In this document: piece after piece, positions 27,918-36,468 of the stretch
Position numbering within the stretch: the stretch's first letter is position 1
Layout of the letters: every line of letters starts with the position of its first letter
DNA from: an uncultured Acidobacteriota bacterium
GTDB lineage: Bacteria; Acidobacteriota; Thermoanaerobaculia; Gp7-AA8
Length of the DNA: 40,916 nucleotides
Reading direction: 5' to 3'
NCBI GenBank assembly: GCA_937870635.1
Contig: CALMZP010000160.1
Span: 1-40,916, forward strand
Program-made: the position numbers and the translations under genes
Notes under the pieces: model-generated
The model's database searches: none
What the model was told of the DNA's origin: nothing
The model's input: the letters and a program-made list of their open reading frames with translations, nothing else

Positions 27918-28598
27918 TCATTCCTTGTGCAGACCGCACTCGGTCTTGTTGAACCCGGCCCACCGGCCGGCGCGCGGATCTTCTCCGGGAGCCACCGGGC
28001 GTGTGCACCAGGTGCAGCCGATGCTCGGGTAGTTGCGGTCATGAAGCACGTTGTAGGGAACCGCGTGCGCGCGTACGTAATCCCACACACGTTCGGAGGT
28101 CCAGTCGGCGATGGGATTGAACTTCCACAGATTGAACTTCTCGTCCCATTCGATCTTCTTCGCACTCGCGCGCGATGGAGCCTGGTCCCGGCGGATCCCC
28201 GTGATCCAGGCACGCAGGGTCCGCAGCTTCTGCTGCAACGGCTCGACCTTTCGGATCGCGCAGCAACGGTCGGGGTCACTCGACCATAACGCCTCGCCGT
28301 GGACCAGAGCCTGCTCATTGGGAGCGAGGCTGGCCCGGCAGCGTTCGACGGAGATTCCGTATCGCGATTCGATCGTGTCGATGAGCGCGTAGGTCTCCGG
28401 GAACAGAAAATCGGTGTCGAGCGTGAAGACGCGGAAAGGGATGTCCGTCGCCGCGGCGAGGTCGATCAGCACGACGTCTTCGGCGCCAAAGCTGGAGGCG
28501 ATGGCGACGTCGCCATCGAAGGACTCCAATCCGATTCGCACGAGCTCGCGTGCTTCGAGAGTTTCCGCGTTGTTCCAGGCGGCAGGATCCAGAGACAT
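27918..28598 (-). CDS. cysH: Adenylyl-sulfate (APS) reductase
   Basis: 226 residues. PP-loop fold (SSFGAEDVVLIDL), [4Fe-4S] cysteines in DRCCAIRKVEPL and SIGCTWCTRPV, and the catalytic C-terminal Cys in ECGLHKE. Presence of the Fe-S cysteines places it with APS reductases, consistent with sat and absence of cysC. Reduces APS to sulfite with thioredoxin. ATG 28598 is chosen as the N-terminus of the conserved fold. Last gene of the sulfur operon. Confidence 0.94.
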   Translation of the reverse strand: MSLDPAAWNNAETLEARELVRIGLESFDGDVAIASSFGAEDVVLIDLAAATDIPFRVFTLDTDFLFPETYALIDTIESRYGISVERCRASLAPNEQALVHGEALWSSDPDRCCAIRKVEPLQQKLRTLRAWITGIRRDQAPSRASAKKIEWDEKFNLWKFNPIADWTSERVWDYVRAHAVPYNVLHDRNYPSIGCTWCTRPVAPGEDPRAGRWAGFNKTECGLHKE

Positions 28599-28612
28599 AG
28601 TCAAATCCTTCC

Positions 28613-29341
28613 TCAGATGAGTTGAACGGCGAGATAAAGCGTGAACAGGGACAGCGCGGGCGCGAACGACTTCCGATCGATCCACGGCGAGACGAAAACT
28701 CCGGCGAGAACGCCGGGAACGAGACCGGCGAGAACCATCAGAAACAGATGAGGATCGAAGCTCCGCTGTCCCACATGCACTGCAAAGCTGAGCAGAGCGA
28801 CGATCCACCCGAACATGCTGCTCGTGGCGGCAAGCTGCGGAATGCCCCACGCCGTCAGGATGAGCAGGACCGGCACGAGAAGACTTCCCGAGCCGGCAGC
28901 CGTGAGTGTCACGAATCCCCCCACGATTGCTCCGGAAATGAAGAGCGCGCGTGGATCGGAGGCCGCATCGACGGGATCGGGCTTGGGCCTGGAGCGGATC
29001 CATACGGCGATGGAGGTCGTGAAGAGGCTCACCGCCACCGCGCGCCGGATGAAGAGGTCGCTCGGCGACAGGCCGTTGTTCACCAGCAGCGAAACCGCCG
29101 CGATACCGACCACACCGCCGGCGACGACGATCCAACCCTGGCGCCCCGGCCAGTTCCCGGCGGAGCGATGAGCGATTGACGCCGTGAGCTTCGACACCAC
29201 GAGCGTGGCCAGGCCCGTCGACACAGCTACCGACGGGCGATACCCGGCCATGATGAGCAGCGGCGTGAGAAGAGAGCCCGTTCCGATCCCGGTCGCCCCG
29301 ATCAGAGTTCCTCCGAGCAGTCCAAAGAGAGCCTCACGCAC
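28613..29341 (-). CDS. TauE/SafE-family sulfite/sulfate permease
   Basis: 242 residues from GTG 29341, chosen because AGGAGG lies about 7 bp upstream; it overlaps the sat stop by 8 bp. About eight helices, two TauE/SafE halves (ALFGLLGGTLIGATGIGTGSLLTP and AIVGGFVTLTAAGSGSLLVP). Members move sulfite, sulfoacetate or related anions. Position between sat and cysH suggests sulfate uptake or sulfite release in this pathway. Confidence 0.88.
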   Translation of the reverse strand: MREALFGLLGGTLIGATGIGTGSLLTPLLIMAGYRPSVAVSTGLATLVVSKLTASIAHRSAGNWPGRQGWIVVAGGVVGIAAVSLLVNNGLSPSDLFIRRAVAVSLFTTSIAVWIRSRPKPDPVDAASDPRALFISGAIVGGFVTLTAAGSGSLLVPVLLILTAWGIPQLAATSSMFGWIVALLSFAVHVGQRSFDPHLFLMVLAGLVPGVLAGVFVSPWIDRKSFAPALSLFTLYLAVQLI

Positions 29342-30395
29342 TGCCGGCCTCCTGACGGAAGGCGGCGGCCAGGACGGCGGCGACCTCCGGACGGGTGAAC
29401 TCCTCCGGCAGAGCGATCCCCTCACGAAGCCGCCGCCGCACCTCGGACCCGCTCAGCAGGAGCCGCTCGGCCAGGGCATGGCCGCACGTCTTTCTGCTGG
29501 CCACCCCCTGGCAGCGCAGGCAGTAGAAGACTTCGTCGAAGAAGAGCGGCTTGATGCCGATGCGATCGCCGAACGACGCGACGAGCTTCTGTGCGTCGTA
29601 CGGTCCGTAATAGCGGCCGACGCCGGCGTGATCGCGTCCGACGATGAAGTGCGTGCAGCCATAGTTGCGACGGATGATCGCGTGGAGGACGGCTTCGCGC
29701 GGCCCCGCATACCGCATCCACGCCGGAAGCGGTGTGAAGAGCACCCGGTCGGGCGCGAAGTAATGATCGAGCAGAGCGCCGTAGCAGCGCAGACGAACAT
29801 CGGCCGGAATGTCGTCGGCCTTCGTCTCGCCGACGAGCGGATGAACGAGCAGCCCGTCGGTGACCTCGAGCGCGACGCGGAGAACGTATTCGTGCGCGCG
29901 GTGGATCGGATTGCGAGTCTGGAATCCCGCGACACGCTTCCAGCCCCGCTCCGCGATTTCCGCCCGCACTGCGGCGGCCGTGAGCCAGTCCGCTCCACCG
30001 GCAACGCTGCCCGGCGTGCCGCGCCATTCCACTTCCCCGGCGATGGCAAACTCGCCGGCCGCATGGAAAGCCGCGACACCGGGATGATTCTGGTCATCGG
30101 TGCCATAGATCTTCTTCGCCCAGTCACGGAGCGGGATGCGGAACCCTTCCTGAAGACGCAGGGTTCCGACGATGGCATCGCCGTGAACGAGCGACAGGTT
30201 CGGTTCCGCTGGCAGATCATCCGCCTGCAAAAGCAGAGGGATCGGCCATACCTCGCCGCCGGGAAGCTCCAGACCCTCGACTACCGAGCGGGCTTCGTCG
30301 AACGTCATGAAACGACTCACCGGAGCGAACGCGCCGGTGCTCAGCAGGGCCAGATCGTTGAGGGCACGCGCAGAAATTCGGATTGATCGGGACAT
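29334..30395 (-). CDS. sat: Sulfate adenylyltransferase (ATP sulfurylase)
   Basis: 353 residues. Active-site motifs QTRNPIHRAHE and GRDHAG plus the C-terminal zinc-type cysteines (YCLRCQGVASRKTC). Makes APS from ATP and sulfate. ATG 30395 (or 30398) follows AAGGAG; an upstream ATG at 30413 overlaps the sir stop and is less likely. The single-protein Sat, rather than CysDN, fits direct APS use by cysH. Confidence 0.95.
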   Translation of the reverse strand: MSRSIRISARALNDLALLSTGAFAPVSRFMTFDEARSVVEGLELPGGEVWPIPLLLQADDLPAEPNLSLVHGDAIVGTLRLQEGFRIPLRDWAKKIYGTDDQNHPGVAAFHAAGEFAIAGEVEWRGTPGSVAGGADWLTAAAVRAEIAERGWKRVAGFQTRNPIHRAHEYVLRVALEVTDGLLVHPLVGETKADDIPADVRLRCYGALLDHYFAPDRVLFTPLPAWMRYAGPREAVLHAIIRRNYGCTHFIVGRDHAGVGRYYGPYDAQKLVASFGDRIGIKPLFFDEVFYCLRCQGVASRKTCGHALAERLLLSGSEVRRRLREGIALPEEFTRPEVAAVLAAAFRQEAGSA

Positions 30396-30409
30396 CATTT
30401 TCTCCTTGT

Positions 30410-32095
30410 TCATCCTTCGACTCCGTGGGGAACGCGGCCCGGCGACTCATCACGCACCGCGACGACAATGGGCGCACCAGCGAGCAGCGCGCGAATCTCT
30501 TCTTCGGAATGGCGGCCGAGGAACTGCCGCAGCGTTTCTCCCCCGCTCCGGCCGGCTTCGAACGACCGCAGCAACCTCTCGATCGACGCCGGGACGTCAC
30601 TCGCCGGGCAGCGGTAGCCGACCGGGCGCGCCAGCGACGCCTCGCTGCCAAGCCCGCCGCCCACGCAGAAGTAATAGGCGTCGACCAGCTGATCGCCGAC
30701 GCGAATCTTCTTTCCCTCGATCCCGATGTCGGCGATCCAGTGCTGGCCGCAGCTGTTCGGGCATCCCGTCACATGGATCTTGAGCTGTTCGCTGTATTCC
30801 GGCAGCCGCTGGTCGAGCTCGCCGACCAGCCACCGTGAAAAGGTCTTCGTCTCGGTGATGGCGATCTTGCAGAACTGCGTGCCGGTGCAGGCGATCGTCC
30901 CGCGGACGAACGGCGACGCCGCCGTCTGGAGGCCGGCCGCGCTCAAGTCTCGCGCAACCGTTTCCGCCCGCTCCATCGGGACATTCGCCACGAGGAGGTT
31001 CTGCATGATCGTCGTCCGCAGTTCCCCTGACCCATGGCGCTCCGCCGCATCGGCCGCCGCGCGCATTTGCGGAACGAGCATCCGCCCCCGCAGAACGGCC
31101 GCTCCCACGTACGCATAGCCCGGCTGCCGCTGCGCATGGATCCCGACGTGATCGCGATACACGTCTTCGGGAGGATGCTCCGTCACACCCCTTCTCAACT
31201 GGAATGGAAGCCGTGCCTGAATGGCCTCCAACGCCTCGGCCGCGGTCCACCCATGCTGCAGAAAGAGATACTTGAGGCGCGCGCGCTCGCGATGCTCGCG
31301 GAGCACGCCGGCGTCACGAAACACTTCCGCCACGGCACGAACGGCAGGGATCACTTCGTTCCAGCCGAGAAACACATCGAGCTTTCTGGCCAGATGCGGC
31401 TCGGAGGAGAGCCCGCCGCCCACACGGAGGGAAAATCCGATCTCTCCGTTCCAGTCCCGAACCGCCGTCAGGCCGACATCGTTGATCTCCGGATAGGAGC
31501 ACCAGAGGCGGCAGCCGGTGATCGTCACCTTGAACTTCCGCGGCAGGTTGTAGAACTCACGGTCGCCGACCAGGCTTCGAGTGGCCTCGATGGCGAGCGG
31601 CGACGCATCGCAGATCTCGTCGGCGTCGAGGCCCGCCAGCGGGCAGCCCGTGATGTTGCGCGCGTCGTCGCCGCACGAGCCCATCGTCGTCAACCCATGC
31701 GTCCACAACGTGTCCAGCAGATCTGGCAGCGCCTCGGCAGGAATCCAGTGGAGCTGCACGTTCTGCCGCACCGTGATGTCCGCCACGCCTCCGGCATACG
31801 CTTCGGCGGCATCGGCGATGGCGCGCAGCTGGTGCGAGCGCAGCAGTCCATTGGTCACGCGGATGCGCACCATGAACCAGGGAGCGGACTTCCCCTCGCC
31901 TCCCTTGCCGCCCAGAACTCCGGCACCATCCCCCTGCGTGTAGACGCCCCACCAGCGGAGGTACGTGGAGATCCACTCCTGCGGGATCGCGTCGAATCCG
32001 CGCCGCGCGTACAGCCGCAGCTCGTCCAGCGCTTCCCACGGGTTCAACTCCCGCTTCAGCCGTTCCACCCTCTGTGCTTTTGTCTCGACTGTCAT
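30410..32095 (-). CDS. Siroheme [4Fe-4S] sulfite (or nitrite) reductase
   Basis: 561 residues, two ferredoxin-like and two siroheme-binding halves. The cluster/siroheme cysteines are C-T-G-T-Q-F-C (IACTGTQFCKIAITETK) and C-P-N-S-C (VTGCPNSCGQHWIAD). Family includes assimilatory sulfite and nitrite reductases; the sat-cysH neighbourhood makes sulfite the likely substrate, reduced to sulfide. First gene of the operon, preceded by a Cys-Cys leader peptide and paired hairpins. Confidence 0.93.
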   Translation of the reverse strand: MTVETKAQRVERLKRELNPWEALDELRLYARRGFDAIPQEWISTYLRWWGVYTQGDGAGVLGGKGGEGKSAPWFMVRIRVTNGLLRSHQLRAIADAAEAYAGGVADITVRQNVQLHWIPAEALPDLLDTLWTHGLTTMGSCGDDARNITGCPLAGLDADEICDASPLAIEATRSLVGDREFYNLPRKFKVTITGCRLWCSYPEINDVGLTAVRDWNGEIGFSLRVGGGLSSEPHLARKLDVFLGWNEVIPAVRAVAEVFRDAGVLREHRERARLKYLFLQHGWTAAEALEAIQARLPFQLRRGVTEHPPEDVYRDHVGIHAQRQPGYAYVGAAVLRGRMLVPQMRAAADAAERHGSGELRTTIMQNLLVANVPMERAETVARDLSAAGLQTAASPFVRGTIACTGTQFCKIAITETKTFSRWLVGELDQRLPEYSEQLKIHVTGCPNSCGQHWIADIGIEGKKIRVGDQLVDAYYFCVGGGLGSEASLARPVGYRCPASDVPASIERLLRSFEAGRSGGETLRQFLGRHSEEEIRALLAGAPIVVAVRDESPGRVPHGVEG

Positions 32096-32103
32096 GAAAT
32101 GCG

Positions 32104-32127
32104 AAGGCCCGCCTTGCGGCGGGCCTT
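32104..32127 (-). promoter_or_regulatory. Hairpin near the sir start (second stem of the leader)
   Basis: Arms AAGGCCCGCC (32104-32113) and GGCGGGCCTT (32118-32127) with a four-base loop, ending only ~9 nt before the sir ATG. Could mask translation start. Its 5' arm (minus strand AAAGGCCC) can pair instead with the end of the upstream hairpin. Confidence 0.6.
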
Positions 32128-32140
32128 TCCCTGGAAACAG

Positions 32141-32177
32141 AAAGGCCCATCGCCGTGCTCGCCGGCGATGGGCCTTT
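32141..32177 (-). terminator. Terminator-like hairpin between leader peptide and sir
   Basis: 14-bp perfect stem: AAAGGCCCATCGCC (32141-32154) and GGCGATGGGCCTTT (32164-32177), 9-nt loop, followed on the minus strand by CTTTCTGTTT. It may terminate the upstream methyltransferase transcript or act as the terminator of a cysteine attenuator; the second is favoured by the leader peptide just before it. Confidence 0.65.
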
Positions 32178-32202
32178 GTCGTCGTTTACCCGTTCTCTGT
32201 GA

Positions 32203-32271
32203 CTAGACGAATGCCTCCGCGCCGTTCGAGCCGTGAGCGTTACAACACATCGGTCGGTACGCGGAAATCAT
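32203..32271 (-). CDS. Candidate cysteine leader peptide of the sulfate-assimilation operon
   Basis: Reading frame of 22 codons from ATG 32271; an inner ATG at 32250 gives MCCNAHGSNGAEAFV. Two consecutive TGT cysteine codons follow that inner Met. It ends at TAG 32203-32205, 25 nt before the terminator-like hairpin and 107 nt before sir. No ribosome site is seen, and a weak promoter-like TTGCGT-AAGATG pair would place the transcript start close to ATG 32271, as in leaderless cysteine leader peptides described in mycobacteria. Translation is inferred, not shown. Confidence 0.5.
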   Translation of the reverse strand: MISAYRPMCCNAHGSNGAEAFV

Positions 32272-32310
32272 CGTGTGCGCATCTTGCGGGTGCGCGGATG
32301 GAAACGCAAA

Positions 32311-33426
32311 TCAGAAGTGTTGATTGCGCAGGACGACGCGCAGATCCTGCGGGCCGAAGATCCGGGCATTGATCGCTTCGACGACGCGCCGGAGCGCCGG
32401 CGGATCATCGGGACGGCTCTCGAGCGCGGTGCCTTCCGGCAGCGGATGCACCGCGCGCACTTCCTCGACATCGAACCCGTGCTCGCGGCCAAGGAGGACG
32501 AGCGCGGCCGGGTGGCGCGGTGCCAGGTGCGTCGGATCGCGCCAGAATTCGGATCCGCTGACGATGATCGACTCGGCGTTGGGCGTCTCGATCATGAGCA
32601 CTCCGCCCTTCTTCAGAACACGGGCGGACTCGCGGAACAGGGCAAAAAGCGCATCGACGGGAAGATGTTCGACGACATGGGCGGCGAGGATCGAACCGGC
32701 ACTGCCATCCGGCATACCCTGGAAGCATTCGGGAATGCCGCTGAGCGTGACCTCGAAGCCGCGCTGCCTGAGATCGGCGACCGAGCGCTCGTTCGTATCG
32801 AAGCCGCGCGCCTCGACGCCCCGCTCGCGGCAGATCTCGAGAAATTCGCCACGTCCGCATCCGAGATCGAGAGCCGGCGGTGATTGCGCCGCGCGGGCGG
32901 CGTACGGCTCCATCGCGGCGCGCACTTCCGCCGCTGAGCCGCGCAGACCGTCCTCGAGACGGCGATAGAGAAAGTCGCTCGCGATCTGCGGCGCGCTGGC
33001 GCCGGCGGCGATGATGGGATTGGTGACGTCGCGCAGGCGGACGGCGAGGGTCTCGATCTTCTGATCGAGCGCCGCGATGAGCGCGTCATTCCGCCGCGAC
33101 GCGATGGGGATCAGCTCGCGGATCTCTCGAATGTCCTTCGCGAGTGCGGTCTCCGAGTGACGGAGGTCGCGCTGCACGGACTCGACATCGCCACGCAGAT
33201 CGGCGCGAACGGCTTCGCCGAGCGCGCGGACCTCGTTGACGAGATCGAGGAGGACGAGGTTGAAGTCGCGCTGCCGGTCGCGGTCGGCGGCGCCGGCGCG
33301 ACGCAGGAACTTGTGAAGGACCTTCTGAAGGAAACCACCCTCGCGATAGCGCCGGTCGTCCCGCCAGACCTCGCGCCAGCCGTCGGCGCCCGCGGGCGGC
33401 CCCTCGACATACCGCTCGTCACTCAT
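32311..33426 (-). CDS. SAM-dependent methyltransferase with N-terminal helical region
   Basis: 371 residues from ATG 33426. Residues ~60-165 are charged and probably coiled coil (VNEVRALGEAVRADLRGDVE). The class I methyltransferase core follows: ALDLGCGRGEFLEICRERG (motif I), AAHVVEHLP, and LKKGGVLMIETPNAES. Substrate unknown; similar architectures occur in polysaccharide or lipopolysaccharide gene sets, but no such genes are nearby. Codons upstream to 33543 derive from the heptamer hairpin and are excluded. Confidence 0.8.
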   Translation of the reverse strand: MSDERYVEGPPAGADGWREVWRDDRRYREGGFLQKVLHKFLRRAGAADRDRQRDFNLVLLDLVNEVRALGEAVRADLRGDVESVQRDLRHSETALAKDIREIRELIPIASRRNDALIAALDQKIETLAVRLRDVTNPIIAAGASAPQIASDFLYRRLEDGLRGSAAEVRAAMEPYAARAAQSPPALDLGCGRGEFLEICRERGVEARGFDTNERSVADLRQRGFEVTLSGIPECFQGMPDGSAGSILAAHVVEHLPVDALFALFRESARVLKKGGVLMIETPNAESIIVSGSEFWRDPTHLAPRHPAALVLLGREHGFDVEEVRAVHPLPEGTALESRPDDPPALRRVVEAINARIFGPQDLRVVLRNQHF

Positions 33427-33451
33427 GGGAGGGAGGATAGCCGAAGTGGGA

Positions 33452-33584
33452 GTGCGGCAGCTGGAGCCAGCCTTCGGCCGGTCGATTTTGGATTTTGGAT
33501 TTTGGATTTTGGATTGTGGGCCAATCCAAAATCCAAAATCCAAAATCCAAAATCGAAGGCCGAAGGGCGACTCCAGCTGCCACC
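33452..33584. repeat. Extended inverted repeat containing a 33-bp perfect period-7 hairpin
   Basis: Core arms 33483-33515 and 33523-33555 are perfect complements built from GATTTTG heptamers, loop GTGGGCC. Outside them GCAGCTGGAG/CTCCAGCTGC and CCTTCGGCC/GGCCGAAGG also pair imperfectly, extending the structure to ~130 bp. Located between rplI (3' end) and the methyltransferase gene (5' end). Confidence 0.9.
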
Positions 33585-36206: not shown

Positions 36207-36282
36207 TGGAGCCGTTGACCGGACTTGAACCGGTGACCTGCTGATTACGAATCAGCTGCTCTACCAACTGAGCTACAACGGC
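36207..36282 (-). tRNA. tRNA-Thr (anticodon CGT)
   Basis: 76 nt including encoded CCA. Acceptor GCCGTTG pairs with CAACGGC; D-arm GCTCAGTTGGTAGAGC; anticodon stem CTGAT/ATCAG with loop TCGTA-type giving CGT, reading ACG; T-arm GGTTCAAGTCC. All four arms fold. Confidence 0.97.
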
Positions 36283-36320
36283 TTACTGCGGCAGGACCCC
36301 GAAGAACAGCAAGGCGCGCG

Positions 36321-36349
36321 ATTCTATTCACGCGGCCGCAGACTGTCCA
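36321..36349 (-). promoter_or_regulatory. Promoter of tRNA-Thr
   Basis: Minus strand TGGACA (36349-36344), 17-bp spacer, TAGAAT (36326-36321); start near 36314, about 32 nt before the tRNA 5' end. Confidence 0.6.
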
Positions 36350-36391
36350 GCACGGCGGCGCCACCGCCGCTGTGGTAGCTTTTCTTCTGCT

Positions 36392-36468
36392 GCGCCCTTA
36401 GCTCAACTGGACAGAGCATCAGACTTCGGATCTGAGGGTTGGGGGTTCGAATCCCTCAGGGCGCACCA
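36392..36468 (+). tRNA. tRNA-Arg (anticodon TCG)
   Basis: 77 nt with encoded CCA. Acceptor GCGCCCT/AGGGCGC, D-arm AGCTCAACTGGACAGAGC, anticodon loop CTTCGGA (TCG, reads CGA), T-arm GGGGGTTCGAATCCC. Its last 13 bases overlap the 3' end of the response-regulator gene on the other strand. Confidence 0.97.

What the first reader, a model, noticed from the sequence alone, without database searches (positions are those of the whole stretch)
32104..32271. Candidate cysteine-sensing attenuator (Cys-Cys leader peptide plus competing hairpins) before the sulfate-reduction operon
A short frame with two consecutive TGT codons (MCCNAHGS...) ends 25 nt before a terminator-like stem, itself followed by a second stem abutting the sir start. 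The 3' arm of the first stem (GGGCCTTT) is complementary to the 5' arm of the second (AAAGGCCC), so the two are mutually exclusive: the classic attenuator design. Polycysteine leader peptides controlling sulfur genes are known in mycobacteria; one in this phylum would be new to me.
Basis: partly seen in the sequence, partly recalled or inferred. Interest (0 to 1): 0.8.

Follow-up and report, generated by a model that had tools for sequence, protein, structure and literature searches.

The report
Cysteine-sensing attenuator before sulfite-reductase operon
In soil Acidobacteriota, a tiny gene rich in cysteine codons sits just before the sulfur-assimilation genes, next to an RNA stop signal and an alternative fold that would cancel it, so the cell probably makes these enzymes only when cysteine runs short; the switch recurs before the same operon across the phylum and appears not to have been described there.

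Summary
In detail: on the minus strand, leader ORF MISAYRPMCCNAHGSNGAEAFV (32271-32203), a 15-bp hairpin 25 nt after its stop, and a second hairpin abutting sir (30410-32095), first gene of a sir-sat-tauE-cysH operon. In the window alone the Cys-Cys frame could be chance (about 13% in shuffles). Comparison settles it: 61 of 61 Acidobacteriota sir loci in one set (window included) and 28 of 29 in a second carry a Cys-Cys leader ORF (antisense 2/61; shuffles about 8/61; Rokubacteria/Methylomirabilota-type 0/19). Most have an intrinsic terminator about 27 nt after the leader stop. The best-supported antiterminator is not the stem1/stem2 pairing proposed, but the 3' end of the leader ORF pairing with the 5' arm and loop of the first hairpin; this pairing co-varies across 24 divergent units (0 of 20,000 permutations as good). 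Leaders favour TGT, the rare Cys codon, and start about 10 nt after a -10 box (near-leaderless). The nearest relative has two such units in tandem. Similar units precede cysM and encapsulin/rhodanese operons elsewhere in the phylum. Best explanation: ribosome-mediated, cysteine-responsive transcription attenuation. No expression data exist; the window's own promoter and U-tract are weak.

The parts
32281..32309 (-). candidate promoter: TTGCGT (32309-32304), 17-nt spacer, CAAGAT (32286-32281); 9 nt before the leader ATG
   Evidence: Weak match (3+3 of 12), but the nearest relative L007 has TTGACA-N17-CAAGAT-N11-ATG at the same place; 51 of 58 units have the start codon 6-11 nt after the -10. 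Not called by the consensus scan.
32203..32271 (-). leader ORF MISAYRPMCCNAHGSNGAEAFV*
   Evidence: RPMCC shared with L007 MICNPRPMCCLCDATSVAASGEFVHM; Cys-Cys leader ORF in 61 of 61 acidobacterial sir loci of set 1
32242..32247 (-). control codons TGT TGT (Cys-Cys), the rare Cys codon in this genome
   Evidence: TGT 1 of 46 Cys codons in main window ORFs; leaders overall TGT 253/TGC 142 against sir 69/612, p 7e-78
32220..32231 (-). antiterminator 5' arm, outer helix GCTCG-AA-CGGCG, inside the leader ORF
   Evidence: pairs with 32167-32157; swap test over 24 units
32206..32211 (-). antiterminator 5' arm, inner helix TTCGTC, ending at the leader stop codon
   Evidence: pairs with 32183-32178 GACGAC; same two-helix layout in Terriglobia TGCTGA/TCAGCA
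32178..32183 (-). antiterminator 3' arm, inner helix GACGAC
32157..32167 (-). antiterminator 3' arm, outer helix CGCCG-G-CGAGC = upper 5' arm and loop of the terminator hairpin
   Evidence: mutually exclusive with the terminator stem
32141..32177 (-). attenuator terminator hairpin (stem 1), 15 bp, followed by imperfect U-tract TTTCTGTTT
   Evidence: -30.3 kcal/mol, z -7.2; position 25 nt after leader stop matches the median of 27 nt in 58 units
32104..32127 (-). second hairpin (stem 2) just before the sir start; its 5' arm can also pair with the 3' arm of stem 1
   Evidence: -21.9 kcal/mol; alternative -24.7; unique in the genome by exact pattern; no U-tract; role unknown
30410..32095 (-). sir: NirA/Sir-type siroheme reductase, first gene of the controlled operon
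   Evidence: Pfam NIR_SIR and NIR_SIR_ferr; NirA family best NCBIfam but below cut-off; sulfite reductase role inferred from operon
29334..30413 (-). sat, ATP sulfurylase
   Evidence: PF01747, NF003166 above cut-off
28613..29425 (-). TauE/SafE family permease (sulfite/sulfate-related)
   Evidence: PF01925
27918..28664 (-). cysH, (phospho)adenylyl-sulfate reductase
   Evidence: PF01507, NF002537 above cut-off

Best explanation
A ribosome-mediated, cysteine-responsive transcription attenuator controls the sir-sat-tauE-cysH operon. RNA polymerase starts a few bases before the leader ATG; a ribosome translates MISAYRPMCC... behind it. When Cys-tRNA is short the ribosome stalls at TGT TGT, leaving the 3' end of the leader ORF (32231-32206) free to pair with the 5' arm and loop of stem 1 (32183-32157); stem 1 cannot form and transcription runs into sir. 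When cysteine is plentiful the ribosome runs on to the stop codon at 32203, covers the 5' arm of the antiterminator, stem 1 folds and transcription ends before sir. Shown: the sequence elements, their recurrence and co-variation across Acidobacteriota, and the rare-codon bias. Inferred: promoter and start site, translation of the leader, the response to cysteine, and termination itself. In the window the freed 3' arm of stem 1 may also open stem 2 (speculative).
For: Cys-Cys leader ORF upstream of sir in 61/61 (set 1) and 28/29 (set 2) acidobacterial loci against 2/61 and 4/29 on the antisense strand, about 8/61 and 2.4/29 in shuffles, and 0/19 Rokubacteria/Methylomirabilota-type loci. In 1.75 Mb (both strands) a composite scan (Cys-Cys ORF ending just before a strong terminator) gave 61 hits, every one at a sir leader or a locus found with the covariance model, none elsewhere. 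Terminator covariation: 7 pairs changed on both sides, 0 of 500 shuffles as high. Leader-ORF-3'-end to terminator-5'-arm pairing is specific to each unit: sum of residual energies -120.7 against 0.1 +/- 17.4, 0 of 20,000 permutations over 24 divergent units. Start codon 6-11 nt after the -10 in 51 of 58, stop-to-terminator spacing median 27 nt. Rare TGT enriched in leaders, p 7e-78. Relative L007 carries two such units in tandem. The function of downstream genes fits: sulfate assimilation here, cysM and family-2A encapsulin/rhodanese operons elsewhere.
Against: No expression, ribosome-profiling or cysteine-shift data. In the window the U-tract is imperfect and the promoter is weak; the consensus scan found neither. 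The window antiterminator fold alone is only modestly better than shuffles (z -1.8; p 0.09) and the duplex p 0.04. Only one relative (L007) is known in the same family, so the window itself has little direct conservation. Within the Terriglobia alignment the antiterminator helix is nearly invariant and shows little covariation; support comes from comparison across clades. In the swap test some units (L008, L112, L154, L158) rank poorly.
Confidence: 0.85

Rival explanations
1. The Cys leader acts on translation of sir (as inferred in mycobacteria): ribosome position decides whether stem 2 or another structure hides the sir start, and stem 1 is not a true terminator.
For: Stem 2 lies 8 nt before the sir ATG; stem 1 U-tract is weak; the stem 1 3' arm can pair with the stem 2 5' arm (-24.7 against -21.9 kcal/mol).
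Against: Relatives have clear intrinsic terminators with long U-tracts at this position, and most lack stem 2; antiterminator pairing competes with the terminator 5' arm.
Confidence: 0.1
2. Stems 1 and 2 are only terminators of the upstream methyltransferase gene; the Cys-Cys frame is chance.
For: The methyltransferase stop (32311) is 40 nt upstream of the leader ATG; the Cys-Cys frame alone arises in about 13% of shuffles.
Against: The Cys leader plus terminator recurs before sir with different upstream neighbours, in about ten of 18 loci on the opposite strand; RPMCC is shared with L007; Cys codons are the rare synonym.
Confidence: 0.03
3. The leader senses something other than cysteinyl-tRNA, such as a thiol-reactive metal or general translation slowing.
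For: Cys-rich leader ORFs could bind metals or respond to oxidants; the peptide is otherwise variable.
Against: Downstream genes are sulfate assimilation, cysteine synthase, or sulfur-linked encapsulin operons; runs of up to five Cys with the rare codon fit codon-level sensing.
Confidence: 0.05

Closest known systems
Classical leader-peptide transcription attenuators (trp, his, leu, thr; enteric bacteria)
   Same: Short ORF with control codons of the regulated amino acid, antiterminator overlapping the ORF end, intrinsic terminator before the first gene
   Different: Cysteine as the amino acid, Acidobacteriota, near-leaderless leader ORF, no detectable sequence relation
uORFC-8-2 motif upstream of cysS, Rhodobacterales (PMC8632094)
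   Same: Tandem Cys codons in a uORF followed by an intrinsic terminator; proposed Cys-tRNA attenuation
   Different: Other gene (cysS), other phylum, UGC dominant there while UGU dominates here; the published motif places Cys codons inside its first stem
Polycysteine leaderless sORFs of mycobacteria (Canestrari 2020, cited in PMC13236596; earlier predicted in PMC1262725)
   Same: Leaderless or near-leaderless Cys-rich sORF upstream of sulfur genes including cys operons; cysteine-responsive
   Different: No conserved terminator hairpins reported there (PMC1262725); here a terminator and antiterminator are conserved. The primary paper was not held and is known to me only by title and citation

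Membership tests
Ribosome-mediated transcription attenuator | leader ORF with control codons for the amino acid made by the operon | tested here: met
   operon identity
Ribosome-mediated transcription attenuator | intrinsic terminator between leader ORF and first gene | tested here: met
   met in relatives; in the window the hairpin is strong but the U-tract imperfect
Ribosome-mediated transcription attenuator | antiterminator mutually exclusive with the terminator, 5' arm within reach of the ribosome at the leader stop | tested here: met
   modest on the window alone
Ribosome-mediated transcription attenuator | termination depends on translation of the control codons | not testable with these tools
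   no expression data
uORFC-8-2 (cysS, Rhodobacterales) | located upstream of cysS in Rhodobacterales | tested here: not met
   located upstream of sir in Acidobacteriota
Mycobacterial polycysteine leaderless sORF | leader ORF starts at the transcript 5' end | tested here: inconclusive
   start codon 6-11 nt after a -10 box in 51 of 58 units; no start-site mapping
Mycobacterial polycysteine leaderless sORF | no conserved terminator hairpin (PMC1262725) | tested here: not met
   terminator conserved and covarying here
T-box, SAM and other known riboswitches | match to an Rfam family | tested here: not met
   only two tRNAs in the window; none in ten relatives

The most novel reading that the evidence does not exclude
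Acidobacteriota possess a phylum-wide cysteine regulon built from independently varying near-leaderless polycysteine transcription attenuators, covering sulfate reduction, cysteine synthase, O-acetylhomoserine sulfhydrylase and sulfur-linked family-2A encapsulin operons, with tandem double attenuators in the window's own family and, in the window, a second switch in which the freed terminator arm opens a hairpin over the sir start.
Probability: 0.35. Interest if true: 0.75.

Novelty: new variant of a known kind. Interest (0 to 1): 0.62.

Why it matters
Almost none of the attenuators predicted in Acidobacteria had an assigned function in the one broad survey found (PMC2965389). This gives one with a clear signal, amino acid and gene set, found across many acidobacterial genomes, shows that cysteine attenuation with an intrinsic terminator is not confined to cysS of Rhodobacterales, and suggests that a sulfur-linked encapsulin operon is cysteine-regulated. 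It is directly testable with simple reporters.

Tried and rejected
The stem1/stem2 competition as the main switch: rejected, since stem 2 has no equivalent in most relatives and the leader-to-stem-1 pairing is the conserved one. Stem 2 as a repeat or mobile element: exact pattern occurs once in the genome. Known riboswitch: no Rfam match. Terminator of the methyltransferase gene: rejected by neighbour comparison. A Cys leader before one cysteine-synthase-like gene of the same genome (G000:C42): none found. cysM in general: only 3 of 30 top cysM loci have a Cys-Cys ORF, at chance level, so the cysM attenuator is restricted to some lineages; likewise the simple ORF count at encapsulin loci (6/11) is not above its antisense control (5/11), the case there resting on individual units. 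PAPS reductase in the window's family: 3 of 18 genomes, the third (L087) belonging to another locus without a Cys leader seen by eye. Canestrari 2020 full text: not held. One literature search was badly worded and returned only medical papers.

Full report
Setting. On the minus strand the operon is sir (30410-32095), sat (29334-30413), tauE (28613-29425) and cysH (27918-28664). The sir protein is of the NirA/Sir type; no NCBIfam model reaches its cut-off, so 'sulfite' reductase rests on the operon. Only 2 of the 18 genomes of this family have this sir at the threshold used.

Observation. On the window alone the Cys-Cys ORF is not significant (about 13% in shuffles); the two hairpins are. TGT TGT is notable because TGT makes up 1 of 46 Cys codons in 13 main ORFs of the window.

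Comparison. Eighty sir relatives were fetched from genome contigs by protein similarity only. All 61 acidobacterial loci with upstream sequence (window and L007 counted) have an ORF with Cys-Cys in the 330 nt upstream, 53 with three or more in a row; antisense 2, shuffles 8 on average. Nineteen loci assigned to the Rokubacteria/Methylomirabilota group (one of them, L049, labelled Acidobacteria but with sat directly upstream) have none. That split was made by me from record titles and gene order after seeing the leaders, so the 0/19 is descriptive. A second set drawn from unnamed phylum genomes gave 28 of 29. These loci are related to each other, so the counts are not independent events. Typical leaders are MSDFSNFRRESNCACCCCAQVCSGAGKLLT and MLRQNLCAMCMCTCCCCAFVCSGAGRLPT.

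Terminator. Nearly all the Terriglobia-type loci have a GC-rich stem followed by a U-run 15-140 nt before sir. On a 54-sequence alignment its 13 pairs form in 91.7% of cells, with 7 pairs changed on both sides; no shuffle reaches these values. A composite scan of 1.75 Mb found 61 cases of a Cys-Cys ORF ending just before a strong terminator, all at sir or at covariance-model loci; the latter (L090 onward) were chosen for the pattern and are not independent.

Antiterminator. In Terriglobia the leader ORF ends in TCTGGCG...TGCTGA, which pairs with TCAGCA...CGCCAGA, the latter being the upper 5' arm of the terminator. It is near-invariant there, as expected of a segment that must fit both partners, so covariation is slight. 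Across clades the letters differ and the pairing persists: window GCTCG-AA-CGGCG with CGCCG-G-CGAGC and TTCGTC with GACGAC (GACGAA-type inner helix); L007 unit 1 GCATCCGG with CCGGATGC; L007 unit 2 CCGGC-A-ATGGG with CCCAT-C-GCCGG; L096 CTCTCCGGC-GGTGG with CCACT-GCCGGAGAG; L131 and L115 at cysM. The swap test asks whether each terminator prefers its own leader: residual sum -120.7 against 0.1 +/- 17.4, 0 of 20,000 permutations. The 24 units were picked by hand as diverse and to have a leader and terminator, not by antiterminator strength, but one Terriglobia representative and several same-lineage sets remain, so the exact probability should not be over-read. Individual units are modest: window z -1.5 to -1.8, p 0.04-0.09.

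Start of the leader. In 51 of 58 units the start codon is 6-11 nt after the -10 hexamer within an allowed range of 4-45 nt. With a usual start site about 7 nt after the -10 (general knowledge) the leader would have a 5' UTR of a few bases at most. The window's promoter is poor (TTGCGT-N17-CAAGAT) but L007 has TTGACA-N17-CAAGAT in the same place.

Codon choice. Leaders use TGT 253 and TGC 142; the sir genes of the same loci 69 and 612 (p 7e-78). The choice among synonymous control codons is known to affect sensitivity of attenuators (PMC1183508); here a single tRNA-Cys would read both, which I did not test, so the reason is open.

Tandem units. L007 has a first unit (leader MICNPRPMCCLCDATSVAASGEFVHM and terminator AGCCCACCCCGGATGCAACCGGCGGTGGGCT) and a second (leader ending NCPCCRDSRWTSSGNGSG and terminator AGGATGCCCATCGCCGGAAACGGGGATGGGCATTTT) before sir. 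It is the only clear tandem case in the set. The window has one leader and two hairpins; stem 2 might be the remnant of a second unit or part of a second-level switch in which the freed 3' arm of stem 1 opens stem 2 (-24.7 against -21.9 kcal/mol). This is speculation.

Other genes. A covariance model from 49 Terriglobia leaders hit 14 of 396 phylum genomes at E 0.001 or better. Downstream lie sir (L090, L091), rhodanese with family-2A encapsulin (L092, L093, L094, L099, L100), cysM with a JAB-domain gene (L096, L097, L101), an O-acetylhomoserine sulfhydrylase-like gene (L102) and a FadL-like porin (L098). The model includes the Cys-codon region as sequence, and weak hits (L098, L102, L103) are less certain; L103 shows no leader and is probably false.

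Literature. Cys-codon attenuation with an intrinsic terminator has been proposed for cysS in Rhodobacterales (uORFC-8-2, PMC8632094). Cys leader peptides without terminators were predicted in Actinobacteria (PMC1262725) and shown to be cysteine-responsive in mycobacteria (Canestrari 2020, by citation only). A 2010 survey notes that almost no attenuators of Acidobacteria have an assigned function (PMC2965389). I found no report of this system, but the library is open-access only.

Verdict. Calling it cysteine-responsive remains an inference from codons and gene context.

Noticed in passing
L092, L093, L094, L099, L100, L108, L112: Cys-leader plus terminator upstream of rhodanese and family-2A encapsulin genes in Acidobacteriota, suggesting cysteine control of a sulfur-linked encapsulin operon.
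   Followed up: partly
L096, L097, L101, L115, L131: Cys leaders with very strong leader-terminator pairing upstream of cysM-like genes (with a JAB-domain gene at L096 and L101).
   Followed up: partly
L102 (minus strand): Leader MKCNGTGTLVYMCCMAMPMRGPSALGGMLM before an O-acetylhomoserine sulfhydrylase-like gene has both Cys and Met codons and might sense both.
   Followed up: no
L007:4650-5000: Two complete Cys-leader/terminator units in tandem before sir in the window's nearest relative.
   Followed up: partly
L037, L067, L068, L077, upstream of sir: Rokubacteria/Methylomirabilota sir loci lack the Cys leader; several carry instead a small ORF with two CxxC motifs and a terminator-like hairpin.
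   Followed up: no
window 33425-33545: Imperfect GATTTTGGATTTTGG-type repeat overlapping the start of the upstream methyltransferase ORF (translated DFGFWI...SKIQNPKSKI).
   Followed up: no
window 36207-36468: tRNA-Thr(CGT) on the minus strand and tRNA-Arg(TCG) on the plus strand, about 110 nt apart.
   Followed up: no
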